This document shows, piece by piece, positions 783-35,287 of a stretch of 64,000 nt of DNA. Numbering within the stretch: the stretch's first letter is position 1; every line of letters begins with the position of its first letter. The translations under genes and the position numbers were made by a program. The notes under the pieces are model-generated. The model saw only the letters and a program-made list of their open reading frames with translations. It was not told where the DNA came from and made no database searches. The stretch is from Lentibacter sp. XHP0401 (lineage in GTDB: Bacteria > Pseudomonadota > Alphaproteobacteria > Rhodobacterales > Rhodobacteraceae): NCBI RefSeq assembly GCF_025751535.1, contig NZ_JAOWLC010000013.1, positions 1 through 64,000 of the forward strand. Direction: 5' to 3'.

Positions 783-798
783 GGTGGCGGAGACGAAG
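783..798. repeat. Distal attachment-site core repeat
   Basis: GGTGGCGGAGACGAAG is identical to 35272-35287 at the tRNA-Ser end and differs immediately outside it. Here it also opens a hairpin: GGTGGC pairs with GCCACC (802-807), and AGAC pairs with GTCT around a GAA loop. The tRNA body is absent on this side, so this is the distal copy made by site-specific integration. Confidence 0.85.
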
Positions 799-1002: not shown

Positions 1003-1512
1003 CTAAAACGGAATTCCGATGAGAAACCTCAGTAAGGAGAATGCACCAATTGGGTTAACAGTTTCGCCAAATAGTGTCTCCCCGACAGCCAGTTCGAGAG
1101 TGGCATTCTCGATACCGGCGTCGATTACCACGCCAGTTCCAAGCTCAGCGGCAATCTCTGATGTTACGGCGAAGAGAACTTCCGGATCTTCTGCCATTGC
1201 TGCCGTTACATAACTTAACGAATCCGTTGCTTTCAGCTGTATCTCGGAGACACCGTCAAGACCGCCGAACACCATGATGTCCGTGACCGGGTGGTTGGTT
1301 GCTTCAAACATCGCAGCCTCAATACCTTGGACTGCCAGAGCTTCAACATACTCCTGCTCGAACAGGATGCCTTTTATGTTGCTCATGTGGCCAACTGTCG
1401 AAGCCGGATCAACAGTAGCGAAATAGTCGATGATCTCGTCGTTCGAAGCGGTTTCGAGGGAGTTATACCCGCGACGCACCGCTTCAAAAACGTCGTGATC
1501 GACGATGTTCAA
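1003..1512 (-). CDS. Small protein with possible PD-(D/E)XK (QxK-type) nuclease motif
   Basis: The product is 169 residues from a TTG start that overlaps the stop of the ankyrin gene (TTGA), with GGAG a few bases upstream, so translation is probably coupled. I recognise no named family. Residues 49-100 read like a minimal PD-(D/E)XK core: Glu52/Glu54 in a helix, Asp78 after a His-Pro-Val-Thr turn, then Glu90-Ile-Gln92-Leu-Lys94 on the next strand. A Gln before x-Lys is found in Mrr-like nucleases. The last 20 residues are hydrophobic (NPIGAFSLLRFLIGIPF), perhaps a membrane or interface helix. It is the last gene of the helicase-ankyrin cassette. A toxin or effector role is inference; it could equally be non-catalytic. 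Confidence 0.7.
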   Translation of the reverse strand: MNIVDHDVFEAVRRGYNSLETASNDEIIDYFATVDPASTVGHMSNIKGILFEQEYVEALAVQGIEAAMFEATNHPVTDIMVFGGLDGVSEIQLKATDSLSYVTAAMAEDPEVLFAVTSEIAAELGTGVVIDAGIENATLELAVGETLFGETVNPIGAFSLLRFLIGIPF

Positions 1513-2618
1513 GAAACAGCTCCGTAGCGCTTCAAAAGTTCAGTGCAGTTTGTATTCACCCGCGTAATCCCCTGACGGTCATAAGAAAAATCGAGCGCCG
1601 ATTTGCTTTCTGTATCGCTAAGGTTCGGGTCGGCACCGTTTTCAAGAAGTAACTCAACAACAGCCGTATGTTTCCGCTCCGACGCCTGCATCAACGCACT
1701 GCGTTTCTTAGCAGCCAGATGATCCACCGATGCATCTGCCTCTAGCAACGCTTTGCACAAGTCCACGCGGCCACGGTCTGCAGCTGCATGAATCGGTGCC
1801 CATTTTGGTCCTTTTACATTCACCGACGCACCACGTTCGATGAGGCGCATTGCGCATTCATCTTGGGCGACCATTATTGCGTTTAGAAGCGCTGGATTTC
1901 CTTCTTTGTCACGGATGTTGATGTCTGCTCCGGCATCAAGCATCAGATCTAGAATATCATCGTCACCCCTTCCGATCACCGAGATCAACAATGGCTGCGC
2001 GTCAGCAGCACCGACATTGACGTTCACGCCATCCGCGATCAGGAATCGAACAGTATCAAGCGAACCGTGCTCGTAAGCCGACAACAAGGCTGCTTCCTTA
2101 AATTTCCGGCCGAAGTTTGCGCCGTTCTCCGTCAAAAAGTCCACAATCGCGGTATGTTGTTTGAAAAACGCGCCAGTCACGGCGTTCCACCCGTCGTCTG
2201 AACAAATGTGAAGGTCTGCACCGTTTTCGATCAGATATTCTACGATATGCTTATAGCCCTTGATCGAAGCCCAAATTAATGGTGTCCAACCCCGATGATC
2301 TCGCGCGGAGATTTCAGCGCCATGCTGAAGCATCAGATCAGCAAGTTCAAAATGTTCGTTCTCAAGTGCAAGAACGAGTGCGCCCTTGCGGCAATCTGCA
2401 CCAAGGTTCGGGTTCGCTCCCAAAGTGACAAGTCGGGTTGCAATACCTAGATATCCTAACTCGACAGCGACAGTGAGAGAAATTCCTGTTTGCGCATTAG
2501 GGTCGAACTCCGGATTGGCGGCTATCTTCGAGGCCTCGTTCGCAAATCCCTTCTTCAAGGCTTCGATAAATTGATCGGCCAGGCTCTCGCCGCCGTCGCT
2601 GTGTTTACCGTCTTTCAT
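1509..2618 (-). CDS. Ankyrin-repeat protein
   Basis: The product is 369 residues from ATG at 2618, chosen because GGAGGG lies 10 bases upstream; an in-frame TTG at 2651 would add 11 residues. Nearly the whole chain is about ten ankyrin repeats, with the usual A-x-x-x-G-H and L-L-x-x-G-A-D-x-N signatures (for example GWTPLIWASIKGYKHIVEYL, then NGADPNLSD near the end). There is no signal peptide or enzymatic domain, so it is probably a cytoplasmic protein-binding scaffold. The end overlaps the small putative nuclease gene, and the start is about 100 bases after the helicase stop. It may bind or restrain one of these partners; that role is inferred from position. Confidence 0.85.
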   Translation of the reverse strand: MKDGKHSDGGESLADQFIEALKKGFANEASKIAANPEFDPNAQTGISLTVAVELGYLGIATRLVTLGANPNLGADCRKGALVLALENEHFELADLMLQHGAEISARDHRGWTPLIWASIKGYKHIVEYLIENGADLHICSDDGWNAVTGAFFKQHTAIVDFLTENGANFGRKFKEAALLSAYEHGSLDTVRFLIADGVNVNVGAADAQPLLISVIGRGDDDILDLMLDAGADINIRDKEGNPALLNAIMVAQDECAMRLIERGASVNVKGPKWAPIHAAADRGRVDLCKALLEADASVDHLAAKKRSALMQASERKHTAVVELLLENGADPNLSDTESKSALDFSYDRQGITRVNTNCTELLKRYGAVS

Positions 2619-2716
2619 AGTCGCTAGACCCTCCGCAAATTTTCGTTTCAAATATTATGAAGTTTCTATAAGTGGCTGTTTTGGGTTCCACTGGAGCTGT
2701 TCTAATATTTCAGTTT

Positions 2717-5413
2717 TCAGACAACAAACCTGTTGCTAAACAGGGGTTCAATTGGTGCGAGTTTGGCAGGCAATGTTTCTCCATGACATGTCAGCCCTAA
2801 ATAGGTAGCTGCCCTAGTGGTTCCAACGTAAAGGTATTTATCAAACAATTCAGGAAGTTGCTTGGCCAAGTCGTCAACACTAACAAAAAACACGGCTTCA
2901 AACTCCAAGCCTTTGATGTGTTGAACATCAAAAACTCGGATATCGTTATTTTGCCCCGCGAATTGGCCCTCATGGCACGGAACGACATTCATGTTATGTA
3001 TTTCGACTCGTTCACGCAGCATCTCGGCAAGAGGGCCGACTTCTTGTTCGTTGTTGACCAGAATAGCAACAGAGGGAAGCGGTGCAGTAAGGCTTTCGAT
3101 TTCCACCAAGCGTTTGGTAAGCCAATCTGCGATGGCAGTCCGGTCACTTAGATTCATGGCAAGCACTGGCTCAATACCGTCGCTATTGACGTCCTTGGGC
3201 AGGGTAACTTCCACCATTTGGCCGGAACACAGGCGCACGATTTCTGTCGCCAAGTGGCTGAGCTGCCGACTGTGGCGATAGGTAACCTCGATAGGTCGGA
3301 CGTCAATACCGGGGACAGCCCAGTTTATGTCATCATTCGACCGACTACCCCATTCAGTAATGCGTTGATTGAAATCTCCGCAAGCGAAGAATGACTGGAT
3401 TGCCGGGTTCGAAAGCGCGGCCATGCTACGCAACTGAAGCGGCGAGAAATCCGTCGCTTCATCAACCATAATCTGATTGCGGACAAGCTCAAGATATTGC
3501 CGGACTGGCTGAAGAGAGGCGTCATCTTGAAGCCGCGCCGCCGAGGGGTGCGCTACTACCTCTGCCAAAACGCTGAGTGCGCTCGCAAGCATCAGATCAA
3601 CTTCCAAAGGATGCGCATCCGTCGCAGATGCGGCTCCGACATCATACCAATGAGACTCAGCCAATCTAGTCCGACGGAAACGCCTATATCTCGTGGGCAA
3701 CCCATTGATATAGCGTCGTATAGGACTGACAAATCTCCGAAAAGCAGTTTGAAGTTGGAGGCTGCCGCCTATCTCGCTCAGTTCGCCTCGTTCCATTGTT
3801 CGATCGCCAATCCAAGCAGCGATTTTTCCAGTGCGTCCACCTTTTGGCACCTGCCGCCCAGACGCGGCAGCGAGTGCCTGGCTCCGGATATTCGCGGTAA
3901 ATGCTACCAGTGCTTTTGCGACCGGTGTCGGTGCAGTCGCGAGTTCCTCATCCTCATCTCCGTCTCCCTCCTCAGAATCTTCCTCAGAAGCAAGCGTGTC
4001 GAGGAACCGCGCAAAATCTTTAAGGAGCTCGCGATCATGATTTAGACGTAAAGTGATGTGTCGACGAATTCGATCATCGGTTTCCGACCGCAAAGTAGCC
4101 AGAGGCACTTGCACGTCGTTGGAAAAGCGGACCAGCTCAAGAAGAGCGCTAGCTGTGGTCGATCGACGTAGCTTTTTTAATACTTTATCAGCGTCAACAC
4201 CAAATCGCGAAATCTCTTTGCGCACAGATTTTTTTAAAGTTTCAGCAGCGGTGTTTAAGCCGGACCAGAAATCTTCAACCTGCCATTCATCAAAATCCTC
4301 AAACCAAATAGCTTGCCCAGTAATTGTGTCAGAAAGTAATATTTGGGCAGCACGTTGTTGGACGAAGGCACCACTTCCTCCGCTTGATTTCAGAATTCGG
4401 AAATGGTTGCGTGCAAGCTCCAGACGATATCGCTCCCAAGTAGATATCCTTTGGTCCGGGGCCGCTATGCCCTCGCGCGCAAAGGCCTCTTTCAGATACT
4501 GCTTCAACAGTTCTGTCGGAGTAAACATCATCCAACTGTCCCTATGCGGGAGCATGGTTTCAGCTTCCGTGCCTGACACAATGCGTCTCTCATCGTCTTC
4601 GAGGTAGACTACATCCAACTTCTGACCGAGTCGGCGAATAAGTGTTGTGGTCTTTCCAGTTCCTGGCGGGCCGATAATCAATAGTTGCTTCTGTAGTGGC
4701 AGACGAAATATTTCGTCTTGGTAGCGGTCTAGGATCGGCTGATCCCGCAGGCCCATTTTTGTGATGACGGTGCGCTTTATACCTTCGATGATTTTATCAG
4801 CGTGCTGAGCCTCTGAAAGGATATGGCTAAGAATATCCTCATCGATCAGGGATCCGGTGCCAGCATCATCCAAAAGTTGACGCATCGATGGAATCGTGAT
4901 CGTGCCATAGGAGTCTGCCGACAATACTGAGTCACGCGAATCCCAAGTTTCGTGCGCAAAAAGCGGATACAGAATCCCTTTTTCCTGCACCGTTACGGAA
5001 AGTTCGCCGTTTGGGAGGCGCAATTCAAAGTCATCGCCGACAGCAAGAGACGCCAAGCGACCAGCGGGGGAATTGCGACCGGCAAGACGGTAATTCGAGT
5101 TGCCAAAGCTTTCGGCTGTATTTCTGCAGATGTAATAGGTAACCGTTTCACCATCATCACGTAGAACAACGACTCTTGCGATTGCAGGTTCTCGAGCGAA
5201 TGAGATCAAGCTACGCATGCGCTCATCGTCGATGTTGTCGAGTGATCTTAATGCTCCACCCGAAGTGAATGTATTGATGCTTGCGAAAGCCTCCGCGCCC
5301 GATGAACGGTTTCCTTCAAGTCGCGTTCGAGCGGCTGCTGCCAATTCGGTCAATGTGCTTAAAGTATCGCTTGATATCCGAACAACATCATCTTTCTGGC
5401 TGGCATCGATCAT
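2717..5413 (-). CDS. UvrD-like superfamily 1 helicase with N-terminal GreA/GreB-C-like domain
   Basis: The product is 898 residues. Residues 248-255 are a Walker A (GPPGTGKT) after a Q-motif-like stretch. Near 655 is the Walker B MVDEATDFSPLQL, followed by a UvrD-type GDFNQRI and Y-R-H-S-R motif. Near 833 and 861 are HIKGLEFEAVFF and YVGTTRA, the C-terminal motifs of UvrD/Rep helicases. Residues 74-145, with NSPAGRLASLAVGDDF at 114-129, resemble the FKBP-like C-terminal domain of transcript-cleavage factors GreA/GreB. That fold would suggest contact with RNA polymerase, as in HelD-type proteins; this is inference. An acidic linker (EEDSEEGDGDEDEE) sits mid-protein. The gene starts 155 bases after brxL, in the same direction, and heads the helicase-ankyrin-nuclease cassette. 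It is not one of the usual six BREX type 1 genes. Confidence 0.85.
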   Translation of the reverse strand: MIDASQKDDVVRISSDTLSTLTELAAAARTRLEGNRSSGAEAFASINTFTSGGALRSLDNIDDERMRSLISFAREPAIARVVVLRDDGETVTYYICRNTAESFGNSNYRLAGRNSPAGRLASLAVGDDFELRLPNGELSVTVQEKGILYPLFAHETWDSRDSVLSADSYGTITIPSMRQLLDDAGTGSLIDEDILSHILSEAQHADKIIEGIKRTVITKMGLRDQPILDRYQDEIFRLPLQKQLLIIGPPGTGKTTTLIRRLGQKLDVVYLEDDERRIVSGTEAETMLPHRDSWMMFTPTELLKQYLKEAFAREGIAAPDQRISTWERYRLELARNHFRILKSSGGSGAFVQQRAAQILLSDTITGQAIWFEDFDEWQVEDFWSGLNTAAETLKKSVRKEISRFGVDADKVLKKLRRSTTASALLELVRFSNDVQVPLATLRSETDDRIRRHITLRLNHDRELLKDFARFLDTLASEEDSEEGDGDEDEELATAPTPVAKALVAFTANIRSQALAAASGRQVPKGGRTGKIAAWIGDRTMERGELSEIGGSLQLQTAFRRFVSPIRRYINGLPTRYRRFRRTRLAESHWYDVGAASATDAHPLEVDLMLASALSVLAEVVAHPSAARLQDDASLQPVRQYLELVRNQIMVDEATDFSPLQLRSMAALSNPAIQSFFACGDFNQRITEWGSRSNDDINWAVPGIDVRPIEVTYRHSRQLSHLATEIVRLCSGQMVEVTLPKDVNSDGIEPVLAMNLSDRTAIADWLTKRLVEIESLTAPLPSVAILVNNEQEVGPLAEMLRERVEIHNMNVVPCHEGQFAGQNNDIRVFDVQHIKGLEFEAVFFVSVDDLAKQLPELFDKYLYVGTTRAATYLGLTCHGETLPAKLAPIEPLFSNRFVV

Positions 5414-5567
5414 TTATTTCTCTTTTTTCATTAAACTCTCAACGCCGAACGGTAATTTAGAGAAACCTGCAGCATTGACCAAATCTATTTACGTCATTTC
5501 AAAAGTATTGTTGGCGGGGTCTGTCAATTTCAGCAAGGCCGAATGGCGAGACAGTTTTCCATAAACA

Positions 5568-7649
5568 CTAAGAACTGACATACGTCACATAAAACCCCTT
5601 GATCATCCTGTGTTCCTGCATCCTTTCGCCCAAAGAGAAGCCGTTCGTTTTGCGCGGGGTCGGTTGGAAGATGTCCAACCCGCGGTCAAGCACCATCTTC
5701 CAGCCAGTATCCGTGCTGATGTCACGAGCATGCATGGATCCCGTGCCATCAAAGGCCCAGGTAAAATCAACCCCTGTATCTGTGCAGGCTTCGGCAACAC
5801 CGTCCAGACATTCACGTTGTTCCTGAATATTACCATCGTCCGGTGCAGTCATCAGATGCACGGCGACCTGATCTTCAGGTGCCTTGCGGCGGATTAGCAT
5901 TTCGATGAACTCCATAACGTTCCGCGCTTGGTGGAACTTTCGGATATAGGGATCAGTGATCGTGATCCGGCTGGCGCCATCCGTCCATGGGCCAAATATC
6001 TTGTCGAAACTAATTCCCTTGCGATTTTCATTAAACACGATGTGTCCAGGTTTCGGGGCGAAGGCTTTGGGCTGTGCGTCAGGCGCCGTTACCGTATCGC
6101 CTTCTAAGCCTGTATCTGTTCGCTCTGTCGGCGCCTCGGCGTCCTCGTGCAAGATGACCTCTTCATCTTCACCAGTAGGCCTTCGATGATAGAACTGGGG
6201 ATACTCTTCTTCCTCTAAGGTAGTGACTTTCCGCTTTGCACCATCCGCACCAACATAGTAAAAGTCTGCCTTCTCAAAGGTGTTATCGATACGAAGCAAC
6301 TGGTCTTTCACCCGCTTGCGGCTTTCAATGGCCAAGCGCAGAAGCTCTTCGACCTCGTCTTCCGTTTCTCCGCCATTTGGAAAAATCAGCTTCAAAAGAC
6401 CGGACATGGTCTTGTCGATCGCGGCACGGTCGCGGATATGGGTCTGGACTGGCACGGAAAAAAAGCGATTAGGCCTGTTTGAAAAGTCTTCGGCACGTAA
6501 ATGACGTAGTATCTCGGCCAAGTAATCAACGATGAAGCCGTAGCCTGACGTGAACATTTGCCCTCGGATAATGTCGACTTCCCATCCCGGCAAATAGGCA
6601 TGCAAGCGGTCGATAAATGCGCTGTCGTGGAACTGGGGCGGCAAGGCTTCGAACAGATCGCTGTTCTTGAGCATCCAAGGAACGTTGTGATCGGTATTGC
6701 CTACGAAGGCGAAACTGGCCTCGGCGCCCATGGGATTGACCCCACGTGAAAACTGCTTGTTCGCCATATAGTTCTTCATGATGTCGACCAGCGCCTTGTT
6801 GGCCGTCTTTTCACGTCCGGCAAACTCGTCAAAGGCCACAACATCCCAATATCCAACGAGACCTATCCGTCCGTTCGAATTGTTGACGAACAACTTCGGC
6901 ACCGTGATTTCCCCGCCCGAGATCAGCTGACCATGAGGTGAGAATTCCGAATAGATGTGCGACTTACCCGTCCCCTTGGGGCCCAGCTCGATGATGTTGT
7001 AATTGCGCTCCACAAAAGGGATCAGGCGCATTAGCTGCAACAGCTTGGAGCGCCGGCCAAAGGCTTCCGGATCGAAACCGATGCTCTGCATCAGAAGATC
7101 AATCCATTCCTCGGTAGTGAATTGATCGCGCGTCTGACGGTAAGCGTCATAGTCGACACGCGCAATCTGGATCGGCTTCAACGTATCAACGATCCATGGT
7201 GAGATCCGGTTATCCTCGGAAAATTCATATTGCACATCGGCAATGCACCAGACGCCCGTAACCAGTAGCTTAGGATGTGCCTTAACAGTGGCAGCATCAA
7301 TGGCGACACGCTTGACCCCAAGGCTTTCGAACACCGCCTCATAGGCGTCAGTCTTCTCATTCAAAGCCACGCTAACCTGATCAATAACTTTGTAGCGCCC
7401 TTTTTCCTTGATCGTAGACTGAACCAGCCCGGCCTCGGAACGGTGAACGTAATGCTTCCGCAGGATGTCTTTTACCGTCTCAATGCCGGTGGCGATGGAA
7501 GCTTCATCATCGGTCGCGCAATATTGACCAAGGAGATATTCCAGAACGTAGGTGGGCACGATTGCATTGCCCTTTACGGCTTTCACCAGATCCTTGCGGA
7601 CCACATAGCCTGCGAAATGTTCATTGATTTTGTCATCTAATATGCTCAT
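5568..7649 (-). CDS. brxL: BREX protein BrxL, variant with MIT_C-type C-terminus
   Basis: The product is 693 residues. ATG at 7649 is preferred over 7679 because GAGG precedes it and the chain then begins as BrxL proteins do (MSILDDKINEHF). Residues 221-229 hold a Lon-type Walker A (LGPKGTGKSH), followed by SGGEITVPKLFVNN and the Walker B-like VVAFDEFAG: the AAA+ core of BrxL, a DNA-binding ring ATPase. After an acidic linker, residues about 545-693 do not look like the Lon protease domain of classical BrxL. They look like an MIT_C domain (phospholipase D-like fold): GISFDKIFGPW, ITITDPYIRKFHQ, TDTGWKMVLDRGLDIFQ and a final FYVTYV. The gene starts seven bases after pglZ ends. The family call is firm; the C-terminal domain is by pattern recognition. 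Confidence 0.9.
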   Translation of the reverse strand: MSILDDKINEHFAGYVVRKDLVKAVKGNAIVPTYVLEYLLGQYCATDDEASIATGIETVKDILRKHYVHRSEAGLVQSTIKEKGRYKVIDQVSVALNEKTDAYEAVFESLGVKRVAIDAATVKAHPKLLVTGVWCIADVQYEFSEDNRISPWIVDTLKPIQIARVDYDAYRQTRDQFTTEEWIDLLMQSIGFDPEAFGRRSKLLQLMRLIPFVERNYNIIELGPKGTGKSHIYSEFSPHGQLISGGEITVPKLFVNNSNGRIGLVGYWDVVAFDEFAGREKTANKALVDIMKNYMANKQFSRGVNPMGAEASFAFVGNTDHNVPWMLKNSDLFEALPPQFHDSAFIDRLHAYLPGWEVDIIRGQMFTSGYGFIVDYLAEILRHLRAEDFSNRPNRFFSVPVQTHIRDRAAIDKTMSGLLKLIFPNGGETEDEVEELLRLAIESRKRVKDQLLRIDNTFEKADFYYVGADGAKRKVTTLEEEEYPQFYHRRPTGEDEEVILHEDAEAPTERTDTGLEGDTVTAPDAQPKAFAPKPGHIVFNENRKGISFDKIFGPWTDGASRITITDPYIRKFHQARNVMEFIEMLIRRKAPEDQVAVHLMTAPDDGNIQEQRECLDGVAEACTDTGVDFTWAFDGTGSMHARDISTDTGWKMVLDRGLDIFQPTPRKTNGFSLGERMQEHRMIKGFYVTYVSS

Positions 7650-7656
7650 CGGGGCC

Positions 7657-10170
7657 TCAAAAATCCAGTTCAGCGCCACTCGCGCGCTTTAATTGCAAGG
7701 GTTGGCTGGCGTGGTCATCATAGTGGCTGGTCTTGCCGATACGCGCACGCAATTTTAAAAAGACCGTCTGGTTGTTATAGCCCTCGGCCTCGCGGGTCAG
7801 CAGGAAGCTGCGTGGCATTTCCCGTTCGCGGGAATTGTCCGATGTGAAATCAAAGTCGAGGTCGACCTCATCGGAAATCGCGGTGCCATCTGCCGCGTAG
7901 ATGCCCGCGCGCAAAGTGCGCGCTTGCAACTTTTCAGTAACCGGATTGTCTTGCCAGAACGTAATCTGGATTTGCCCCGTGGTAATCTGCGCTTTTTGTG
8001 GGGGGATGATCTGAACCGAGACCTGCGCGACATCTTCTTTTCGCTGTTTTCCGACCCGCAAGATCGGAATAACAATTTCTTGCAGACTCGCCCCCCCATG
8101 CACAAAACGGCTGCCAGATCCTTTCACCCGCAGGCGATTGATTGAATTCGGGATCAGAATCTCCTGATCCCCGTCCATTCCCAATTGTTCGGCGGTGAAG
8201 GTTTTCATACCCGAACTCACCCCAAGACCACGCCCGATAACGAACCGCCGGTTACGGAAGGTAATGCTGTCTCCAGCAGGTTCCGCCAAAGAAAAATCAC
8301 TCTCATCCAACGCACGGTGTTGCCAGAGGAAACCGTGATCGGCGGTAATCAGGATGTTCGAGAAATTGGCCGAAGTCAGCTTGCGAACCAGTTTTACCAA
8401 GTATTCAACAGTCGCTTGCGCTGCTGCGGGCACATTTTCTTCGGTGGCGATCTTGTCACCGACCGCGTCAATTTGGTTGTGGTAGAGGTAGACGATATCA
8501 TGATCGCGAAACATATCTTTGGCGTCGCTACCAGGCATGTTCATGAACTCATCCGCCTTAATGACCTTCGCGCGGTCACCGGCACGCCCCGTGCTCAGCA
8601 CCTTCTCGCGCGCAGCGGCCCCTTGCGTGCTTTCGCTGTCAGCCAGCACGAGATCGCTCTCGTCCTTGAAGGACAGCGACTTATGCGGCAACAGCGCCGC
8701 CATTCCCAACTGGGTGTAGCTGGGTAAGGATGAAATCATCGGTTTTAGATCCGCGTCGAACCGGTTTTGCTTGCGAATTTCGCGCAGCGTTTCCTCCGCC
8801 ACCTCATATCGCAGAGCGTCCGAGATGATGACGACAACCTTCTGATCCTTGCGCCGATATTCGGCGGCTTGCTGGGTGTAGAACTCAGCTTGGCGCGGGA
8901 AACCGGGGATATTCCAATCGGTTAGTCGGTTCACCTGATCCTGCCACGCATCGTTGAGGGCCAAGACAAAATTAGTCGTGTAGCGGTTCTCGACGGCCTC
9001 GTAGAGCGCTGCCAACAGGCCCGCCTGGCCGCTCTTTTGCATGTGATAGATAAAGTTGCGGTAGAGTTGATCGATGCGGAACCAACTGGCGGCATATCGT
9101 TTCACGCCGTCCGATACGCTGGTGATCGTCAGGGTCGCCTCGGCCAGCGCCTGTTGAAACTCCGTGGCAAAGCCGATGGCCTGATAGATGTCGGCGTAAC
9201 GGTCATACCAGTGGCTTTGCTTGCGTGCGCGGACCCATTTTAGCACATCGCCAGCCGGAACTGTCTGTTTTGCCATGGCGTCCACGATAGAGACGATGAT
9301 CTGGCGGTCGATGGCCTCAAAGTGGTCATGCGGCATCAGGCTGCGGAAGTCGCGGGCGGTCAGATCATCTCTGATGCTCAACACGTCTTGATATTCAGCG
9401 GACAGCACCTCGAACGCCTCGCCGGACCGTCGCGCATTGGTCCAGCGTTTGAACATCAGGGCTGCGTGGGCGGTCAGCCGGGCGGGGTCGCCCATTGCGC
9501 GGGTCCAAGCGCTGTCGAACAAGGCGATGGCGAAGTCTTGGAAGTCCGGTTCAGACGCGGTGTAGCCATAGTGTGCGGCGACTTCCTTCCAGAAAAATTC
9601 AGTCAGATGAGCGCGCTCTATCAGGCGCAGGGTGTCGTCGGCCTTTTCAGCCAACTCCCCCAGCATCGCCTCGATCACCGTGTCCAGATCACCATCGGCC
9701 CCGGCGCAGACGGCCAGCATTTTCCGGCGGATCTCGTTGGCGCTTTGCGAGGGCTTCTCTTGCTCCAACGCACGCAGGGCGGCCAAACGCTTGCCGGATT
9801 TGTAGAAATCGGCGTGGTCGCGCACTGCGGCTTCGTATTGCGCGGGGATGCCCAGCTCGGCGACCCAAATCGCGGCCTGATCGGCGCGGAAGACAGCGGT
9901 GGCGAGTTGCAAATCAAGCAGCCAGTTGTCCGCCATTTCGGGTTCCGGCCCGTCGTGGAACACCAGAAACCGCGCCTTGGGTTCTTGGCGCAGCATCCGG
10001 TATTTCAACCCGAACTCATTGTTGGCGATCTCGACCTTCTCGACACCCTCCAACTCAACAGCCTCGAACGCCTCGCGCAACTCGCGCTGCGTGTCATACC
10101 AGAACACAATCCGGTGGCCCTGATCCTCATAGAGGCGCAGCAGGCCCGCTTTGATGCGGTCATTCATCAT
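7657..10170 (-). CDS. pglZ: BREX phosphatase-like protein PglZ
   Basis: The product is 837 residues, the usual size for BREX type 1 PglZ, an alkaline-phosphatase-superfamily protein needed for both host DNA modification and phage exclusion. The metal-binding parts are visible: VVIISDALRYEVAEE near residue 445, and NILITADHGFLWQH near 605, carrying the superfamily D-H pair. The start overlaps the pglX stop by four bases (ATGA), so the two are translationally coupled. Nothing looks truncated. PglZ is thought to act within a complex with PglX and BrxB/BrxC; its natural substrate is not settled. Confidence 0.95.
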   Translation of the reverse strand: MMNDRIKAGLLRLYEDQGHRIVFWYDTQRELREAFEAVELEGVEKVEIANNEFGLKYRMLRQEPKARFLVFHDGPEPEMADNWLLDLQLATAVFRADQAAIWVAELGIPAQYEAAVRDHADFYKSGKRLAALRALEQEKPSQSANEIRRKMLAVCAGADGDLDTVIEAMLGELAEKADDTLRLIERAHLTEFFWKEVAAHYGYTASEPDFQDFAIALFDSAWTRAMGDPARLTAHAALMFKRWTNARRSGEAFEVLSAEYQDVLSIRDDLTARDFRSLMPHDHFEAIDRQIIVSIVDAMAKQTVPAGDVLKWVRARKQSHWYDRYADIYQAIGFATEFQQALAEATLTITSVSDGVKRYAASWFRIDQLYRNFIYHMQKSGQAGLLAALYEAVENRYTTNFVLALNDAWQDQVNRLTDWNIPGFPRQAEFYTQQAAEYRRKDQKVVVIISDALRYEVAEETLREIRKQNRFDADLKPMISSLPSYTQLGMAALLPHKSLSFKDESDLVLADSESTQGAAAREKVLSTGRAGDRAKVIKADEFMNMPGSDAKDMFRDHDIVYLYHNQIDAVGDKIATEENVPAAAQATVEYLVKLVRKLTSANFSNILITADHGFLWQHRALDESDFSLAEPAGDSITFRNRRFVIGRGLGVSSGMKTFTAEQLGMDGDQEILIPNSINRLRVKGSGSRFVHGGASLQEIVIPILRVGKQRKEDVAQVSVQIIPPQKAQITTGQIQITFWQDNPVTEKLQARTLRAGIYAADGTAISDEVDLDFDFTSDNSREREMPRSFLLTREAEGYNNQTVFLKLRARIGKTSHYDDHASQPLQLKRASGAELDF

Positions 10171-18345: not shown

Positions 18346-18473
18346 CGCGATGCCTCATCGGCTCGCCAGAGCTTCAAACACTCTACAGCGACGACCAGCC
18401 TGACAACAGCATTCGGACCTCCAGCAAAGATGTGATCCGGAGCGATATCGTGTTGCTTGCAAGCCGCCATCAT
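18342..18473 (-). CDS. Unannotated 43-residue ORF between brxR and brxA
   Basis: The ORF runs ATG-ATG-GCG-GCT to CGA-TGA. Its first ATG overlaps the brxR stop by four bases (ATGA), and its TGA overlaps the brxA ATG by four bases (ATGA). Double coupling of this kind rarely arises by chance. The product begins MMAACKQHDIAPDHIFAGG and ends LKLWRADEASR, with a small hydrophobic centre (VVRLVVAVECL). I recognise no family. It may be a true small BREX protein, or a leader whose translation carries ribosomes from the regulator to brxA. With no ORF here there would be a 124-base gap in an otherwise gapless chain. Confidence 0.6.
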   Translation of the reverse strand: MMAACKQHDIAPDHIFAGGPNAVVRLVVAVECLKLWRADEASR

Positions 18474-19390
18474 GCAGCACCTGCGGGTGTTGAATTGCCT
18501 TCGTCGATTTCAAACTCCAAACGCCGCAACGCCGTTTCGACTTCAGGCGCATTTACCGCGACAATATGCTGGGTCCGGGGGTCTTGCTGTGCGGCATCGC
18601 CAAGCAAACCAAGCCGTTTGAGGACATAGAACAGCATGGCGTAGCGCACGTTCAAAACAACCCGCCCGTCAACCATGCCGTAATCCTTGGCAACAACCGC
18701 CTGCTGTGATGCCGCGAGGTCGGGGTGCGGCGCGATTTGAAGTTCAAAAAAATCCTGCCACAGCACGTCCCGATCACCAGTGCTTTCGGGCAACCCCATC
18801 TCGCGCACGCCAAGAATCCGCGGCAAGAGGAAATCCTTGAAGCGCTCATTCAGATGACAAAACGCCCGAACATGCCAACGAAACCCGTCAAAGCCAAACG
18901 CATGTGGGGTTATTCGACGCCAGATCGGATCGGGACGGGCTTTGCTCATTGACTGATAATGAACCTCAAGTGACTTGTTTTCTCGCACCGCGTCTAGCAC
19001 AGCCCGCAGCACACCGAGATCGACCTCACGCCTTGGCGTCAGCGCGATGTCCACCATCGGCGGCTTTGCAATCCAGGACTCCACTGGGCCAGATATCTCT
19101 TCCGCAAGAGACCTCAACCGAGAAAGGTAGCTATCAGGATCGGGCTTCAAGAACTTGGGCGAAAACTTCGGGCCGGCGACATAGCGTTTCGCACTCTTGT
19201 CATAGATCGCGTTCTTGGGTGCCCGCTCCTGATACAATGTGAGATCCTTGGACGCTTGCGGGACGGAAACAGCAAACATATCAATGATATCAGCGCGATT
19301 TACGCCACCTTCCCAGAACAACCTGAACTCAATGAACTCAAGCCTCTGCTCAACACCCCACTTCAATGCTGTAGTGCGATCCGCGTTCAT
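18470..19390 (-). CDS. brxR: BrxR-type WYL-domain transcriptional regulator
   Basis: The product is 306 residues from ATG 19390; GTG at 19396, with GAGG a few bases upstream, is an alternative and adds two. The N-terminal region (residues about 10-70) is a winged helix-turn-helix. A WYL domain follows (SLEVHYQSMSKA, then an R-R-I-T-P-H-A-F run and FRWHVRAFCHL), with a C-terminal WCX-like extension. WYL proteins next to BREX operons (BrxR) repress or modulate them by binding inverted repeats. It starts the minus-strand BREX chain and faces sbcD across about 120 bases that hold two AT-rich repeats, so it may control both directions. Confidence 0.9.
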   Translation of the reverse strand: MNADRTTALKWGVEQRLEFIEFRLFWEGGVNRADIIDMFAVSVPQASKDLTLYQERAPKNAIYDKSAKRYVAGPKFSPKFLKPDPDSYLSRLRSLAEEISGPVESWIAKPPMVDIALTPRREVDLGVLRAVLDAVRENKSLEVHYQSMSKARPDPIWRRITPHAFGFDGFRWHVRAFCHLNERFKDFLLPRILGVREMGLPESTGDRDVLWQDFFELQIAPHPDLAASQQAVVAKDYGMVDGRVVLNVRYAMLFYVLKRLGLLGDAAQQDPRTQHIVAVNAPEVETALRRLEFEIDEGNSTPAGAA

Positions 19391-19410
19391 CCTCACTTCA
19401 CCTCAAATTA

Positions 19411-19517: not shown

Positions 19518-20735
19518 ATGCGCATCTTGCACACCGCCGATTGGCATCTTGGACAAACGCTGAATGGCTGGTCGCGCGAGCATGAGCATCGCACCTTCTT
19601 TAACGACCTGAACGGTGTGATCCAGAATGAGGCAGTCGATGTTTTGCTGGTCGCGGGCGATGTGTTTGACGGCATCAATCCCTCCGGTGATACACAGCAA
19701 TTACTCTACTCCACACTCGCGCGTTTTCTAAAATCGCGCCCCGGGCTGCAAATCATTCTGATCGCTGGCAATCATGACCCGGCCCAGCGTTTGGAGGCGC
19801 CCGAGGCGGTTCTGCGCGAACTTGGCGTTCATGTCGTGGGCACGTTGCAACGCGATGGAAACGGCGTGGATATGGATCGTCACCTGATCCCGATGCGTGA
19901 TGCGCAGGGTGTGGTCAAGGCCCACCTTTTGGCTGTGCCTTTCCTTCGGCAGGCAGATTTGCCCGGGCTGACATTAAGCGCGGAAAATGGCGCGGAACCT
20001 GCGATTGTTGCGGCCGCGCGGCGCCTGCATGCCGATATGACAAACGCCGCCGCCGCGCGTGCAGGCGGCCTGCCCATTGTCGCGATGGGGCATTTGACCT
20101 GCAATGGCGCGCTGGAAAGCGAAGGCGCAGAGCGGCGTATCATGATCGGCGGCGAACATGCCGTGCCCCCCGATATTTTCCCTGAAAAATTGGCCTATGT
20201 CGCGCTTGGTCACCTGCATCGCCCACAATCGCTGGACGGCGGGCGGGTGCGCTATTCCGGTTCACCCTTCCCACTGTCAGCGACAGAAATCCCCTATGAT
20301 CATGGCGTCACGCTGCTGGACCTTAACGAAGGGCTGGTTCCGTGCCATATTCCCTTGCAGCGCCCGATTGAAGTTTTGCGCTTTCCAACCACCGGTGCCG
20401 CCCCCTTGCAAGCGGTAGAAGCCGCATTGAGCGCGTTAAACCTTGATCCCGAGGTGCCGCGCGATGCCCGACCATTCGTCTATATTACCTTGACCGCCGA
20501 TCGGCCCGCATCCTCGCTCATGGCCGAAGCCGAAGCACTGATTGAACGGACTCCGGTGCGTTTGGCCGGTCTGTCCATTGCGCGCACAGAACTGGCCGCG
20601 CCCACGGCACCACCGCCTACGTTGGCCGAAACCTCGCCCGAGGATTTGTTCTTGACTGCCTTTCGTCAAGCGCACGCACTTGACGCAGACCCCCGCCACA
20701 TCGCCGCATTCCGCGACGCATTCTCGGAGGTTTAA
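19518..20735 (+). CDS. sbcD: Exonuclease SbcD (Mre11-type nuclease subunit)
   Basis: The product is 405 residues. The metallophosphoesterase motifs appear in order: ILHTADWHLGQTL at the start, LLVAGDVFDG, LIAGNHDPAQR, GHLTC and ALGHLHRP. A strong Shine-Dalgarno (AGGAGG) lies eight bases before the ATG. SbcD is the nuclease partner of SbcC and cleaves hairpins and DNA ends. The gene is divergent from brxR and immediately upstream of sbcC. Core-genome sbcCD is common, so it is notable that this pair lies inside the island next to BREX. Confidence 0.95.
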   Translation: MRILHTADWHLGQTLNGWSREHEHRTFFNDLNGVIQNEAVDVLLVAGDVFDGINPSGDTQQLLYSTLARFLKSRPGLQIILIAGNHDPAQRLEAPEAVLRELGVHVVGTLQRDGNGVDMDRHLIPMRDAQGVVKAHLLAVPFLRQADLPGLTLSAENGAEPAIVAAARRLHADMTNAAAARAGGLPIVAMGHLTCNGALESEGAERRIMIGGEHAVPPDIFPEKLAYVALGHLHRPQSLDGGRVRYSGSPFPLSATEIPYDHGVTLLDLNEGLVPCHIPLQRPIEVLRFPTTGAAPLQAVEAALSALNLDPEVPRDARPFVYITLTADRPASSLMAEAEALIERTPVRLAGLSIARTELAAPTAPPPTLAETSPEDLFLTAFRQAHALDADPRHIAAFRDAFSEV

Positions 20736-20739
20736 TCCC

Positions 20740-23700
20740 ATGCGCATCCTGTCCATATCGGGTCAAAATATCGCCAGCCTCGCCGATACTTTTGTCATTG
20801 ATTTCACCGCACCGCCGCTACTTGGGGCCGGGCTTTTTGCCATTACGGGCGAAACCGGTGCGGGCAAATCCTCCATTCTTGATGCGATGTGTCTGGCGCT
20901 TTATGGCGATGCGCCCCGTCTTTCGGGCGGTGCTGCCTCCGATGAGGTGCCCGACCCTTCGGGTGATACGATCAAAGCCAAGGATTCCCGCGCCATTCTG
21001 CGCCGTGGCGCTGTGCAAGGGTGGGCCGAGGTGCGATTCACCGCGCTGGACGGCGAAGATTACATCGCCCGTTGGCAGGCCCGCCGCGCACGTGACAAGG
21101 TGGATGGGCGTTTGCAAAGCGTCGCCCGGTCCATCGCCCGCGCGGCTGATGACCAGATCCTTGCAGGGCAAACCAGCGCCGTCGCCGAACAGATGCAGCA
21201 TTTGACCGGCCTGACCTATGACGAATTTCGCCGCACGGTCTTGCTGGCACAGGGGGATTTTGACGCTTTTTTGCGGGCCGACACCAATGATCGGGCTGGG
21301 CTATTGGAAAAGGTCACCGGGTCTGGCCTTTACCGCGCGATCTCAACCCGCGTTTATGAACGCACCCACGCGTCGCGCGATGCTCATAACGCGCTAATGC
21401 TGCGACACGCCGAACACAAACTGTTGAGCGACGAAGCACGAACTGAGTTGAAGGCCGAACAAGACGCATTGATTGCTGCAAATGTTACGGATCGCACCGA
21501 AGGCAAATCCCTGACTGCCAGCCTTGATCTGCACCGCCAGTTCGACGCCGCAAAGGTAAGATTAACCGAGGCCGAAACACAGGAAAAAATTGCAGCACAA
21601 GCGGTTCTTGATGCGGCCAAGGACAAGGCACTCCTTGCGCAGATTGATCGCGCAGAGCCTCTGCGTTTGCCGTGGCAAGCGAAAGTTTATGCCGAAAAAC
21701 GCAAAGTAGACGCGACTTCCGCAGTAAAAGAGGCCGAAGAAGCCGCACGAAACGCCGCTGCAGCCGCTAAAAACTTACAAAATGACGCTGAGGACAAAAG
21801 CAAGGCCTTCGACGCCAAAGAAGTAGAGTTCAAGGCGTTTGGCCGTGTTTGGGACCAAGCAGCAAACCTCGACGCGCAGATCGAAACCGCGCATGCCGAG
21901 ACCAAACGCGCAAGTGATGAAACGCAAACCAAAGCGCAAGCCGCTACAGATTTTAGAACTGCGCTCGACGCGTTGAAAAGAGCCGAGAGCGAGACCAAGG
22001 CGAACCAAACCACCGCAGAAAACGCACTATCCGCCCTCGCCGAGGCCATTCCAATTGCGGACCATTGGCCGCAGGTGTGCCAGAACCTTACCGACTATTC
22101 AGACGCAAATGCTTCGCTGGAAAAGGCGCAAAACCTTGTGTCGGGTTGTGCAAAGCAGCTTGGAGAAGTGACCACCCGTCAGACCGAGATTGACGAGAGT
22201 GACAAGGTTGACCGCACGTCCGAAACAGAACTGACGGCAGAACTGAAAGAGCTTGAGAAAGCGATCAACCGTTCGGAAACAGACCACCCGCCCGAAAAGG
22301 CCGAATCTCTATCATCATTGGCGCAAAGCCTGGCAAACCTGACCCGAATTCAGGAGGCCCATGCCGACGCAGAAACCGCGTTGGCAACCGCCACTGATGC
22401 CCAAGACAACGCAAAAACGCAGGCCCAAAAGGCAATCGACCAAAGAGCCGTGGCCGAGGCCGCTCTGCACAATGCAGAGGCGCAAATTACCGCACTTGTT
22501 GCACCAGTGGAACAGGCTGATCTGGCATTGTCTGACAAAGCCCGCGACCTGCGGTTGCGGCTGGAACCTGATCAACCCTGCCCCGTGTGCGGTGCCAAAG
22601 ATCACCCCGTTCACGCCGATGAAGACCTGCTGAAGCTTGCCGAAACCCTGCGGAACAACCTCAGCACAGCAAAGGGCGGCGCAGAAACCGCGCGCAATCA
22701 GCGAACCACCGCAGAGGGGCAACTGGCCGCGGCCCAAGCACGCGAAAAACAAGCGCAGGGTGAAATTTTAATGGCAACACAGCGCAAATCAAAGGCTTTA
22801 ACTCAATGGTCGGAAAACCTACGGGCCGCGCAGGCCAACCCGCTTTACCCGACATTGCCCGCGCAACCTGCCGATCCGGAAAAGACGCTTCTGGCGGCAG
22901 TCAAAACGCTCACCACCCAACAACGGGCAGAGCAAGCAGCGGCGCGCGAACTGGTCGCGCTCCGCAAAACGCTAACAGCGAAGAATACGAGCCGCGAAAG
23001 CTTGCGCGCGACCATTTCGACCCGCAGCACAGAACGCGACGCGTTGGCCACCACGGCGGCCGAGATACGGCAGGCGCAGGCCCTTGCGAAACAAGAGCTT
23101 TCAGGCACAACCACACGCATCGAAAAGCTGACCGCCGGCTTGCGCCCCACACTTACGGCGGCACAGGAACCGATGTCGGCCCTGAGCGATATCCCCGCCC
23201 TGCAGTCCCGTCTTGCCGCGCTGGTCGATCGCATCGCCAGCGCCCGTGCCGCACAACAATCCGCCAGCGATCAACTTGCCGCCCTTGGCCCGCAAATCGC
23301 AACGGCGACCAGCAAAGCAGAAAGCGCTGCGGATCAGGCAAAACATGCTGCCGAGACAGAGACGTCACGTAAAAAGGCTCTGTCAGACCTTCGCACGGCA
23401 CGCGCACCGCTTTTGGATGGGGAAGACACGAAAGCCCATCGCTCACGGCATAACGAGGCCCGCAAAACTGCGCTCAAAACCAAAGAGGAAGCGCAGAACG
23501 CATTGGGCGTCAGCATGCAGAAATCTGCGACCGCCAAGGCCCGATATGACAACGCGCAGAATACCGAGAGCAACGCCGCCGCCGCATTGGAAAAGGCCAC
23601 CATCGGGCTGGCGCAGGCCCTGACCGAAACAGGTTTGGAGACGGAGGAGCTTGCGCCGCTCTTTGCCACCTCACGCGATGACGTTGAAAAGCTCCGCCAT

Positions 23701-31621: not shown

Positions 31622-31671
31622 TGAACCGCCCCGGGTTTACCGGAGAGTAAAACACTCCGAAGGTGAACCCT

Positions 31672-33791: not shown

Positions 33792-35132
33792 TCATTTAAG
33801 ATGATCGGGCACGGCAAACATGATCTCCTCAGCAACGGACAGGCGCTCGGAGAGGCTCAGGCTGTCGCCATAAGTCTCGCGCCCGCGACGGCCCTTAAGG
33901 GAATGCCCCATCAGTTCCCCACGATCATCCGTCTGATAGCCCGCTTTCTTCATCCGGCTTTCCCAACTGTGACGCGTGCCGCCGATAGTCACTCCTTCCG
34001 GCAACAATTCATGCTTGCGCAAATATTTGTTAACTGCGGCGCTATAACTGGCCTTGTTTCTGTATCTGGGAAAACCGGTCGGATGCCGCCTGGCCGCCGC
34101 CAACGCCACCCCGACCAAAGGTATCTCCCGATGCGATGAAAGGTTCTTGACCTCACGCCGCTCCTCGGGGTTGTCGGAAAGTTCATGGGCAATACACAAG
34201 TGCGGGATCGGATCATCCAGGCGGATCGCTGAACTCGGCAAGTTGTAGATTTCATTCTGACGGCAGCCGGTTTCAATCGACATCAACAGAATATCTCGTG
34301 CCTCGTCGTTGAGGCCATCCAACGCACATGGCGCAAACCACTTATCGACAATCCAGTCGACAGGCACTTCTGCCTTCTGGCTGGGCTGTGAATGGCGGTC
34401 TTTGATTGAAATTCCGGCATAGGGTCGCGGCGGGTCTTCATGCTCAAGGTCTTCGTAGAAGCGTGAGAGCATGCCGGACAGGTAGTTGAAATCCTTGTTC
34501 GCGGTATCCGCGGACTGCCCTTCCGTTGTCATGCGCGCCTGCCACCAACGCTTGTGTTTACGCGCTTCTGCTGTGCCAACAGAGATAACATCCGAGTCTT
34601 TACCAAGGGCCTTTATCAAATTGTTTACCGCCCGAAGACGCGGCGACCGCCACAAACGCATTTGTTCGCTGTTTTTGAACCGGTTGTCATGCGCCGCAAG
34701 CCCCTCGACGTGTTCCACCAGTCCAGACAAAAGCAATTTTGGCGCATCGGTGATGCCAAGAACAGCTGATGCGATGACCTCGTTGGGCATACCGTCCGTC
34801 CCACGAGACGCCTCGACCCGTTCCAACACCTCCTCCAAAGCGGCGTTCTCCACTTTGTCGATCGCCAGAAACTGAAATCCACGCGTCGCTGCCAATTGCT
34901 GCGCGGCGCGAAACCTATCGGCTGCGTCACCATCCCGTCCGGCCAAAAGGGCTTCCCAACCCTCAACATAGGCATTCCAAACGCCAGCCGATTTTTGCAT
35001 GGCAACACTATAGGAATCAGTCTTTAGGCTTTCCCAAACAACGGGACGCGCCTCAACAGCCGCATAACGCTTCGGGACACGCCGTTTCAAATACCAGGTC
35101 TTTCCCCGCAGGACAGGCTTTGACATATCCAC
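33792..35132 (-). CDS. int: Tyrosine recombinase (island integrase)
   Basis: The product is 446 residues. The N-terminus (LRGKTWYLKRRVPKRYA) matches the short DUF6538-type domain of Rhodobacterales and Rhizobiales integrases. A core-binding helical region follows, then the catalytic domain: Arg in ETGCRQNEIYNL near residue 288, T-R-H-S-W-E-S-R near 383, GH in LMGHSL near 404, and the Tyr nucleophile in RETYGD near 420. It starts 141 bases from the tRNA-Ser 3' end, with candidate arm sites just upstream of its start, so it is the enzyme that integrated the island. Confidence 0.93.
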   Translation of the reverse strand: MDMSKPVLRGKTWYLKRRVPKRYAAVEARPVVWESLKTDSYSVAMQKSAGVWNAYVEGWEALLAGRDGDAADRFRAAQQLAATRGFQFLAIDKVENAALEEVLERVEASRGTDGMPNEVIASAVLGITDAPKLLLSGLVEHVEGLAAHDNRFKNSEQMRLWRSPRLRAVNNLIKALGKDSDVISVGTAEARKHKRWWQARMTTEGQSADTANKDFNYLSGMLSRFYEDLEHEDPPRPYAGISIKDRHSQPSQKAEVPVDWIVDKWFAPCALDGLNDEARDILLMSIETGCRQNEIYNLPSSAIRLDDPIPHLCIAHELSDNPEERREVKNLSSHREIPLVGVALAAARRHPTGFPRYRNKASYSAAVNKYLRKHELLPEGVTIGGTRHSWESRMKKAGYQTDDRGELMGHSLKGRRGRETYGDSLSLSERLSVAEEIMFAVPDHLK

Positions 35133-35271: not shown

Positions 35272-35287
35272 GGTGGCGGAGACGAAG
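35272..35287. repeat. Attachment-site core repeat at tRNA-Ser 3' end
   Basis: GGTGGCGGAGACGAAG is the exact partner of 783-798. Read on the minus strand it is the last 14 bases of tRNA-Ser, with the CCA, plus two bases. The tRNA gene is therefore kept whole by the element. Confidence 0.85.

What the first reader, a model, noticed from the sequence alone, without database searches (positions are those of the whole stretch)
1003..5413. Helicase, ankyrin and putative nuclease cassette downstream of BREX
Three genes in one direction, the last two coupled by a four-base overlap, follow brxL but are not BREX genes. They combine a motor (UvrD-like), a protein-binding scaffold and a small protein with an E...D...QxK pattern. 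Helicase plus nuclease is a recurrent anti-phage design (for example Gabija), but this three-part set is not one I can name.
Basis: partly seen in the sequence, partly recalled or inferred. Interest (0 to 1): 0.8.

Follow-up and report, generated by a model that had tools for sequence, protein, structure and literature searches.

The report
Ankyrin–nuclease pair beside RNAP-motor-like helicase
Downstream of a phage-defence operon sit two separate add-ons, a conserved gene pair for an ankyrin protein and a small nuclease-like protein and a roaming motor protein that looks built to grip RNA polymerase, rather than one three-gene machine.

Summary
The three genes exist as described, but they are not one conserved cassette. 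(1) The ankyrin and small genes form a conserved pair: adjacent in 9 of 9 loci with a close small-gene relative, and already listed in PADLOC-DB as candidate PDC-M72A/B. The pair sits beside different defence genes (BREX, a type III methyltransferase operon, Druantia III, UvrD-like genes). The small protein is predicted to have the PD-(D/E)XK nuclease core, with E52, D78 and K94 invariant and Q92 in 19 of 20 relatives (identity down to 26%). Its hydrophobic tail ends in G(I/L/F)PF only in ankyrin-paired members; distant kin pair with or are fused to glycine-zipper proteins. (2) The helicase is a separate roaming accessory: with the pair in 2 of 9 loci, but inside other BREX operons (between brxC and pglX) and in type I and type III R-M loci. 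Its core is closer to the RNA-polymerase motor HelD than to UvrD, and its N-terminus matches GreA/HelD N-terminal profiles, so I read it as an RNA-polymerase-docking motor. All cargo lies in a ~34.5 kb tRNA-Ser island with 16-bp repeats. The biochemistry is inferred.

The parts
1003..1512 (-). Small protein (PDC-M72B), predicted PD-(D/E)XK nuclease, 169 aa
   Evidence: PADLOC PDLC04785 1.9e-84; AlphaFold2 mean pLDDT 82, pTM 0.77, alpha-beta-beta-beta-alpha-beta core; Foldseek best rows nucleases but weak E-values and TM-scores
1357..1359 (-). E52, first predicted active-site residue
   Evidence: invariant in 20 of 20 and 17 of 17
1279..1281 (-). D78, second predicted active-site residue
   Evidence: invariant; lies in a stretch of lower model confidence (mean pLDDT 66 for residues 71-80)
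1231..1239 (-). Q92-L-K94 motif (QxK)
   Evidence: K94 20 of 20, Q92 19 of 20
1006..1071 (-). C-terminal hydrophobic tail ending GIPF; proposed ankyrin-docking peptide (inference)
   Evidence: G(I/L/F)PF end in 8 of 8 ankyrin-paired intact members, 0 of 12 others; low pLDDT in the monomer model
1509..2651 (-). Ankyrin-repeat protein (PDC-M72A), 380 aa
   Evidence: PADLOC PDLC04783 4.6e-143; Pfam Ank_2 1.6e-44; next to the small gene in 9 of 9 loci
2717..5413 (-). HelD-like SF1 motor protein, 898 aa
   Evidence: PDB profile search: HelD 1.2e-12 and 1.3e-12 ahead of UvrD 4.1e-8; Pfam UvrD_C_2 1.7e-11; P-loop, DEA.DFS and other motif residues invariant in 13 sequences (motif names recalled)
4964..5188 (-). 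GreA/HelD-N-like domain (aa 76-150 of the motor)
   Evidence: profile-profile vs GreA score 41.3 (best of 60 shuffles 20.6); vs HelD N-terminus 46.6 (best of 60 shuffles 22.9)
4643..4672 (-). P-loop GPPGTGKTTT with Lys254
783..798 (.). att-like 16-bp direct repeat, distal end of the island
   Evidence: exact copy of 35272-35287 at the tRNA-Ser 3' end
35272..35287 (.). att-like repeat at the 3' end of tRNA-Ser(GCT)
33792..35132 (-). Integrase of the island
   Evidence: phrog_1 integrase 1.3e-16

Best explanation
A ~34.5 kb tRNA-Ser mobile island carries type I BREX plus two independent accessory modules. Module A is a two-gene ankyrin-nuclease unit (PDC-M72). The small protein is a PD-(D/E)XK nuclease (E52/D78/Q92xK94) held by the ankyrin protein, most likely through its conserved hydrophobic C-terminal GIPF tail. 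A phage cue read by the ankyrin surface releases or presents the nuclease, which cuts DNA as a backup to BREX. Module B is the upstream gene, a HelD-like SF1 ATPase. Its Gre-like N-terminal domain docks on RNA polymerase, and ATP hydrolysis strips or remodels transcription complexes on invading DNA, helping modification-dependent restriction systems (BREX, type III, type I) or blocking phage transcription. Shown here: genes, conservation, pairing, fold prediction, HelD/Gre profile similarity, modular distribution. Inferred: nuclease activity, ankyrin control, tail docking, RNAP binding, anti-phage role.
For: Pair: PADLOC PDC-M72A/B; ank next to small in 9 of 9 loci; correlated divergence r=0.95 over 8 intact pairs, permutation p 0.0004. 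Neighbours differ: BREX (L020), type III methyltransferase operon (L021), Druantia III (L024), GajB-like UvrD genes (L023, L025); integrase-like genes in L022 and L041 by my reading only. Nuclease: invariant E52, D78, K94; model core; 9 of the first 10 PDB rows are restriction enzymes or Hjc, 5 distinct proteins (class recalled); 15 of the first 30 BFVD rows are named nucleases and the other 15 have no functional name. Tail: G(I/L/F)PF in 8 of 8 ank-paired, 0 of 12 others. Motor: HelD best solved relative; N-terminal profile matches GreA and HelD-N well above 60 shuffles each; between brxC and split pglX in L077 and L078; type III R-M in L030, L031, L057, L081; type I R-M in L036, L039, L040.
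Against: Foldseek scores for the small protein are weak (best E 0.02 in PDB and 0.01 in BFVD, none at or below 0.001; query TM-scores of the first ten PDB rows 0.24-0.41) and no sequence profile links it to a solved nuclease. The motor model failed (pLDDT 48), so the Gre-like domain rests on profiles: of 20 single N-termini only 2 reach E<0.001 against GreA and 5 against HelD-N; the window's own gives 0.0061 and 0.23. One other UvrD-like protein (L021) scores as well against the motor profile (3.8e-12) as HelD does. HelD's own N-terminus did not match GreA in the same test (E 0.54), and HelD's DWR(A/S)P motif is absent. No ankyrin-nuclease complex was modelled. No phage data exist. Association with defence genes was not compared with random genes; 6 of 24 motor neighbourhoods were not counted as defence-linked (L032, L034, L038, L079, L089, L129).
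Confidence: 0.55

Rival explanations
1. A true three-gene helicase-ankyrin-nuclease system: the motor feeds DNA to the nuclease through the ankyrin scaffold.
For: Same strand, short gaps, trio kept in L020; in L021 and L025 a different UvrD-like gene also lies upstream of the pair, and the L021 one scores against the motor profile as well as HelD does.
Against: The same helicase is present in 2 of 9 pair loci (L042 holds only 0.7 kb upstream) and the pair in 0 of 22 other helicase loci in the flanks held; the helicase resembles HelD rather than canonical UvrD; a 65-base gap separates it from the pair, against an overlap within the pair.
Confidence: 0.12
2. The pair is a toxin-antitoxin-like addiction module of the mobile island: the ankyrin protein is a neutraliser and the nuclease a toxin, with island stabilisation rather than defence as the main role.
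For: Order neutraliser then toxin with overlapping genes; one locus (L024) has an intact ankyrin gene but a small gene broken by an in-frame stop; integrase-like genes nearby in L022 and L041 (my reading).
Against: Lies beside several different defence genes and is listed among defence candidates; one broken copy is weak evidence and may be an assembly error.
Confidence: 0.25
3. Membrane-associated nuclease: the hydrophobic tail anchors the enzyme at the inner membrane to cut incoming DNA at entry, and the ankyrin protein recruits or regulates it; distant kin reach the membrane through glycine-zipper or DUF697-like partners.
For: Glycine-zipper partner or fusion in distant relatives (the label is mine); DUF697-like partner in L074, Pfam 1.8e-6; aromatic hydrophobic tail.
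Against: The tail is short for a transmembrane helix and its last residues are nearly fixed, more like a docking peptide; the relatives' C-termini differ.
Confidence: 0.25
4. The small protein keeps the PD-(D/E)XK fold but acts as a nucleotide or DNA sensor rather than a nuclease, like inactive REase domains described for BrxHII.
For: QxK replaces ExK; an inactive REase with a proposed nucleotide-sensing role is described for BrxHII (PMC12839542, passages).
Against: E52, D78 and K94 are all kept in 20 of 20 diverse members, unlike degenerate domains.
Confidence: 0.15

Closest known systems
PADLOC candidate PDC-M72 (M72A ankyrin + M72B small protein)
   Same: The small protein matches its model over full length and the ankyrin protein over residues 19-375; the two genes overlap
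   Different: The model entries carry no description and no paper in the held library contains the name.
HelD / HelR RNA polymerase recycling motors
   Same: SF1 core with HelD as best solved relative; HelD-N-like and Gre-like N-terminal profile; about 400 residues between P-loop and motif II
   Different: Far below the NCBIfam HelD cut-off (33.9 against 419 bits); no DWR(A/S)P motif; found in restriction and BREX loci; GreA similarity detected here but not for HelD itself
BrxHII, the RapA-like SF2 helicase of type-3 BREX
   Same: A BREX-linked motor whose architecture parallels an RNAP-associated ATPase (PMC12839542, passages)
   Different: SF2 Swi2/Snf2 with TUDOR and inactive REase; ours is SF1 with a Gre-like domain
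Gabija (GajA + GajB)
   Same: UvrD-like motor gene near a nuclease-like gene
   Different: No GajA (OLD ATPase with TOPRIM) hit among the genes scanned; GajB similarity only 1.4e-6
Auxiliary PD-(D/E)XK nucleases beside BREX
   Same: Nuclease accessory next to core BREX genes (PMC12839542 section 35 part 1)
   Different: The word ankyrin does not occur in that paper's main text

Membership tests
PDC-M72 | Adjacent M72A and M72B proteins | tested here: met
   PDLC04783 4.6e-143 and PDLC04785 1.9e-84, genes overlapping by 4 bases
PD-(D/E)XK nuclease superfamily | alpha-beta-beta-beta-alpha-beta core | tested here: met
   AlphaFold2 model, pLDDT about 90 over most of the core but 66-73 around residues 71-90; Foldseek best rows mostly this class but E at least 0.01 and low TM-scores
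PD-(D/E)XK nuclease superfamily | Conserved acidic residues and (D/E/Q)xK lysine | tested here: met
   E52, D78, K94 invariant; Q92 19 of 20
PD-(D/E)XK nuclease superfamily | Metal-dependent cleavage | not testable with these tools
   needs purified protein
HelD | SF1 core closer to HelD than to other SF1 helicases | tested here: inconclusive
   PDB profile search 1.2e-12 HelD against 4.1e-8 UvrD; 8 of 8 single HelD sequences (1e-7 to 3.3e-13) beat the own-genome UvrD (1.9e-6) and the L023 and L025 UvrD-like proteins, but the L021 UvrD-like protein (3.8e-12) ties with HelD
HelD | NCBIfam HelD curated score | tested here: not met
   33.9 bits against cut-off 419
HelD | DWR(A/S)P motif in the N-terminal domain | tested here: not met
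   aligned stretch reads GRNSP in the window and SYR(S/A)P in several relatives; motif definition from PMC8655204 passages
HelD | Clamp arm inserted in domain 1A | tested here: inconclusive
   about 400 residues between P-loop and motif II but no reliable model
HelD | RNA polymerase binding | not testable with these tools
   -
Gabija | GajA OLD ATPase with TOPRIM beside GajB | tested here: not met
   no GajA hit for the ten cassette and BREX-region proteins scanned (top 25 rows shown per protein); GajB only 1.4e-6
BREX helicases BrxHI/BrxHII | SF2 helicase models | tested here: not met
   Pfam hits are SF1/UvrD; no BrxH model among the 25 of 29 PADLOC hits shown
Toxin-antitoxin | Toxicity of the second gene, neutralised by the first | not testable with these tools
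   gene order only

The most novel reading that the evidence does not exclude
The motor gene represents an undescribed class of defence component: an RNA-polymerase-docking HelD/Gre-like ATPase that is swapped between BREX, type III and type I restriction loci and couples transcription complexes on foreign DNA to modification-dependent restriction, paralleling the RapA-like BrxHII of type-3 BREX.
Probability: 0.35. Interest if true: 0.8.

Novelty: new variant of a known kind. Interest (0 to 1): 0.5.

Why it matters
If the pair works as proposed it gives a mechanism, and testable residues, to a candidate defence system that so far is only a catalogue entry. If the motor binds RNA polymerase, it would link BREX and restriction-modification to transcription, a link I have otherwise seen hinted at only by the RapA-like BrxHII, and would help explain why helicase-like genes recur in these loci.

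Tried and rejected
Three-gene system: rejected as a conserved set. Gabija: rejected. BREX helicase BrxH: rejected, SF2 against SF1. Sequence routes from the small protein to a solved nuclease, Pfam or PHROGs gave nothing useful (best Pfam among 20 relatives was TOBE at 0.0016 in 2). Structure of the motor failed at pLDDT 48, so no fold search was run with it. Promoter/terminator scan: 2 promoter-like sites against 4.3 expected, terminator-like sites 10 against 5.9; not used. Papers: 'PDC-M72' found in 0. Searches with HelD, UvrD, RapA, ankyrin, DUF4391, BREX and defence terms returned capped lists in which no title or abstract start pointed to this motor or pair; DefensePredictor (PMC13092281) has no main-text hit for ankyrin, UvrD or helicase. 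The word 'held' swamps HelD and preprints are largely missing, so this is weak evidence of absence.
Full report
What is there. The BREX genes brxA, brxB, brxC, pglX, pglZ and brxL are confirmed by PADLOC models. The whole set lies between two exact 16-bp repeats at 783-798 and 35272-35287, the second at the 3' end of tRNA-Ser(GCT), with an integrase beside it. So this is the distal cargo of a ~34.5 kb mobile island.

The pair is the conserved unit. PADLOC lists the ankyrin protein as PDC-M72A (4.6e-143) and the small protein as PDC-M72B (1.9e-84). A scan of genome contigs with the small protein gave six loci. The order-wide search found a match in 14 of 292 genomes: 3 full-length (own, G144, G258), 11 with only a divergent domain. 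With the window that is 9 loci holding a close relative, and in all 9 the ankyrin gene is adjacent. Divergence of the two proteins is correlated (r 0.95 over 8 intact pairs, permutation p 0.0004). In the ninth, L024, the small gene has an in-frame stop at codon 55 while the ankyrin gene is intact. The neighbours change: BREX in L020, a type III methyltransferase operon in L021, Druantia III in L024, GajB-like UvrD genes in L023 and L025, and, by my reading of the sequences without a family search, integrase-like genes in L022 and L041 and a transposase-like gene in L023. The pair is therefore a portable accessory. In a class-wide sample the ankyrin model at E 1e-60 found only the own genome (1 of 385), so it looks rare; the named loci are Roseovarius, Yoonia, Citreicella, Roseococcus, a Rhodobacterales bacterium and Rubellimicrobium.

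The small protein looks like a nuclease. Pfam, NCBIfam, PHROGs and solved sequences give no useful relative. The AlphaFold2 model (17 sequences, mean pLDDT 82, pTM 0.77) has a long helix 36-61 carrying E52, strands 65-68, 79-83 and 87-94 with D78 just before the second and Q92/K94 at the end of the third, then a helix and a strand: the PD-(D/E)XK order. Confidence dips to 66-73 around residues 71-90. Foldseek against PDB has no row at E 0.001 or better and query TM-scores of 0.24-0.41 in the first ten rows, but 9 of those ten are restriction enzymes or Hjc resolvases (5 distinct proteins: EcoO109I, two Hjc, AvaII, Ecl18kI), the tenth a protein of unknown function (class membership recalled). 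Against viral models 15 of the first 30 rows are named nucleases and the other 15 have no functional name. E52, D78 and K94 are invariant in 20 sequences with identities to the window down to 26%, and Q92 is in 19. I take the fold as likely (about 0.85) and activity as inferred.

What the kin say. Distant relatives of this domain sit on longer proteins. In L044, L048, L054 and L056 the gene overlaps by four bases an upstream gene for what I call a glycine-zipper protein (label mine; Pfam gives no family for the one scanned); in L046, L049, L050, L051 and L053 the two are one protein. Thirteen viral contigs hold the same domain; in 7 of the 13 my script printed a glycine-zipper gene directly upstream, and in one, L074, a DUF697-like gene (Pfam 1.8e-6). 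All 8 intact ankyrin-paired proteins end in G(I/L/F)PF after a hydrophobic stretch and none of the 12 others in alignment A1 does. Because the tail tracks the partner, I propose that it is the ankyrin-docking peptide; a membrane anchor is the main rival.

The motor is a separate accessory. Relatives along nearly the full length occur in 3 of 292 genomes of the order (E 1e-20), 5 of 385 of the class (E 1e-20) and 2 of 398 of the phylum (query from L078, E 1e-40), the own genome counted each time; 16 plasmid records match, 9 of them over 80% or more. I looked at 24 neighbourhoods besides the window. BREX: L020, L077, L078. In the last two the motor gene lies between brxC and a split pglX, two bases behind brxC in L077 and, if the GTG start is used, overlapping it by four in L078. 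Type III R-M with SNF2 and DUF4391 genes: L030, L031, L057, L081 (PADLOC was run on L057, the others follow by annotation or similarity; L057 and L081 are near-duplicates). Type I R-M: L036, L039, L040. Other modification or restriction genes: L033, L035, L037 (truncated motor, about 10 kb away), L086, L087. SbcCD-like genes: L029, L058, L088. That is 18 of 24. Six were not counted: L032 (one annotated restriction endonuclease about 5 kb away among conjugation genes), L034 (toxin-antitoxin, DEAD and ParB-type genes), L089 (one neighbour scanned, no hit), and L038, L079 and L129, which were not scanned with family models. No random control was run. The motor in BREX locus L077 is 85-87% identical to those in type III loci L030 and L057, so the same motor has moved between BREX and type III R-M. 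The motor accompanies the pair in 2 of 9 pair loci (L042 holds only 0.7 kb upstream), and none of 22 motor loci tested carries the pair in the flanks held.

The motor is HelD-like. A 13-member profile finds two HelD structures (6wvk 1.2e-12, 6yxu 1.3e-12) ahead of UvrD (4.1e-8) in the PDB (6wvk is named there DNA helicase IV and identified as HelD in PMC8655204 passages). Profile comparison aligns residues 40-886 with a HelD profile. Of single sequences, 8 of 8 HelD (1e-7 to 3.3e-13) beat the own-genome UvrD (1.9e-6), but the L021 UvrD-like protein (3.8e-12) does as well as HelD. Residues 77-144 match GreA (score 41.3; best of 60 column shuffles 20.6) and residues 40-150 match the HelD N-terminus (46.6; best of 60 shuffles 22.9). 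Against this: Pfam's GreA_GreB model is hit only weakly (0.0044 in the window, 3 of 13 members at E 0.1); of 20 single N-termini 2 reach E below 0.001 against GreA and 5 against HelD-N, the window's own giving 0.0061 and 0.23; and HelD's N-terminus did not match GreA in the same test (E 0.54). HelD's DWR(A/S)P motif (PMC8655204, passages) is not kept: the aligned stretch reads GRNSP here and SYR(S/A)P in several relatives. It scores far below NCBIfam's HelD cut-off. So it may work like, but is not filed as, a HelD. The structure prediction failed. With one HelD as query the own genome shows no other relative at E 0.001.

Mechanism. I propose two modules: an ankyrin-restrained PD-(D/E)XK nuclease serving as a backup effector, and an RNAP-docking motor that clears or blocks transcription complexes on foreign DNA. 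Auxiliary PD-(D/E)XK nucleases next to BREX are described in PMC12839542 (section 35 part 1), whose main text has no occurrence of ankyrin or UvrD and which notes that BrxHII parallels the RNAP-associated RapA (passages). That HelD has a Gre-like arm is from the start of the abstract of PMC7749165 as listed, and its anchoring in the RNAP secondary channel from passages of PMC8655204.

Novelty. The motor family got only generic helicase or weak HelD, GajB and C3a187 hits in PADLOC, Pfam and NCBIfam. Overall: new variant of a known kind, interest 0.5.

Noticed in passing
window 19518-24489 and 18470-19396: SbcD-like (Metallophos 7.8e-14, SbcD_C 4.6e-8) and SbcC/RAD50-like genes beside a WYL regulator, on the far side of BREX in the same island; SbcCD-like genes also lie near the motor gene in L029, L058 and L088.
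   Followed up: partly
window 783-35287: Island bounded by 16-bp repeats at tRNA-Ser(GCT) with integrase, Mob_Pre relaxase-like gene, DUF927 primase-like gene and an rve-type transposase gene; looks like a mobilisable integrative element.
   Followed up: partly
L063-L075, L044, L048, L054, L056: Two-gene unit of a glycine-zipper protein (my label) and a protein with the same nuclease-like domain, in IMG/VR contigs of unknown host and in genomes of the window's order; no convincing Pfam or PHROGs match in the members scanned.
   Followed up: partly
L074:4360-5753: Variant in which the nuclease-like domain follows a DUF697-like protein (Pfam 1.8e-6).
   Followed up: no
L024:10001-10510: Natural copy of the small gene with an in-frame stop at codon 55 while its ankyrin gene is intact.
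   Followed up: no
window 5568-7679: BrxL carries a phospholipase-D-like C-terminal domain (MIT_C 4.1e-38), apparently the HKD-fused type discussed in PMC12839542.
   Followed up: no
window 1003-10170 vs L020: Synonymous divergence is patchy: helicase 0.09, ank 0.15, brxL 0.36, small 0.40, pglZ 0.64, which suggests recombination within the cargo; pglX is only 75% identical in the part held.
   Followed up: no
L077, L030, L057: Motor proteins 85-87% identical although one is in a BREX operon and the others in type III R-M operons.
   Followed up: partly
L021:6664-10510: The pair follows a UvrD-like protein with a RelE-like N-terminus (RelE label is my reading) in a type III methyltransferase operon; that protein scores against the motor profile as well as HelD does.
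   Followed up: no
window 31387-31758: Possible fragment of a HEC-06-like defence gene (1.2e-7).
   Followed up: no
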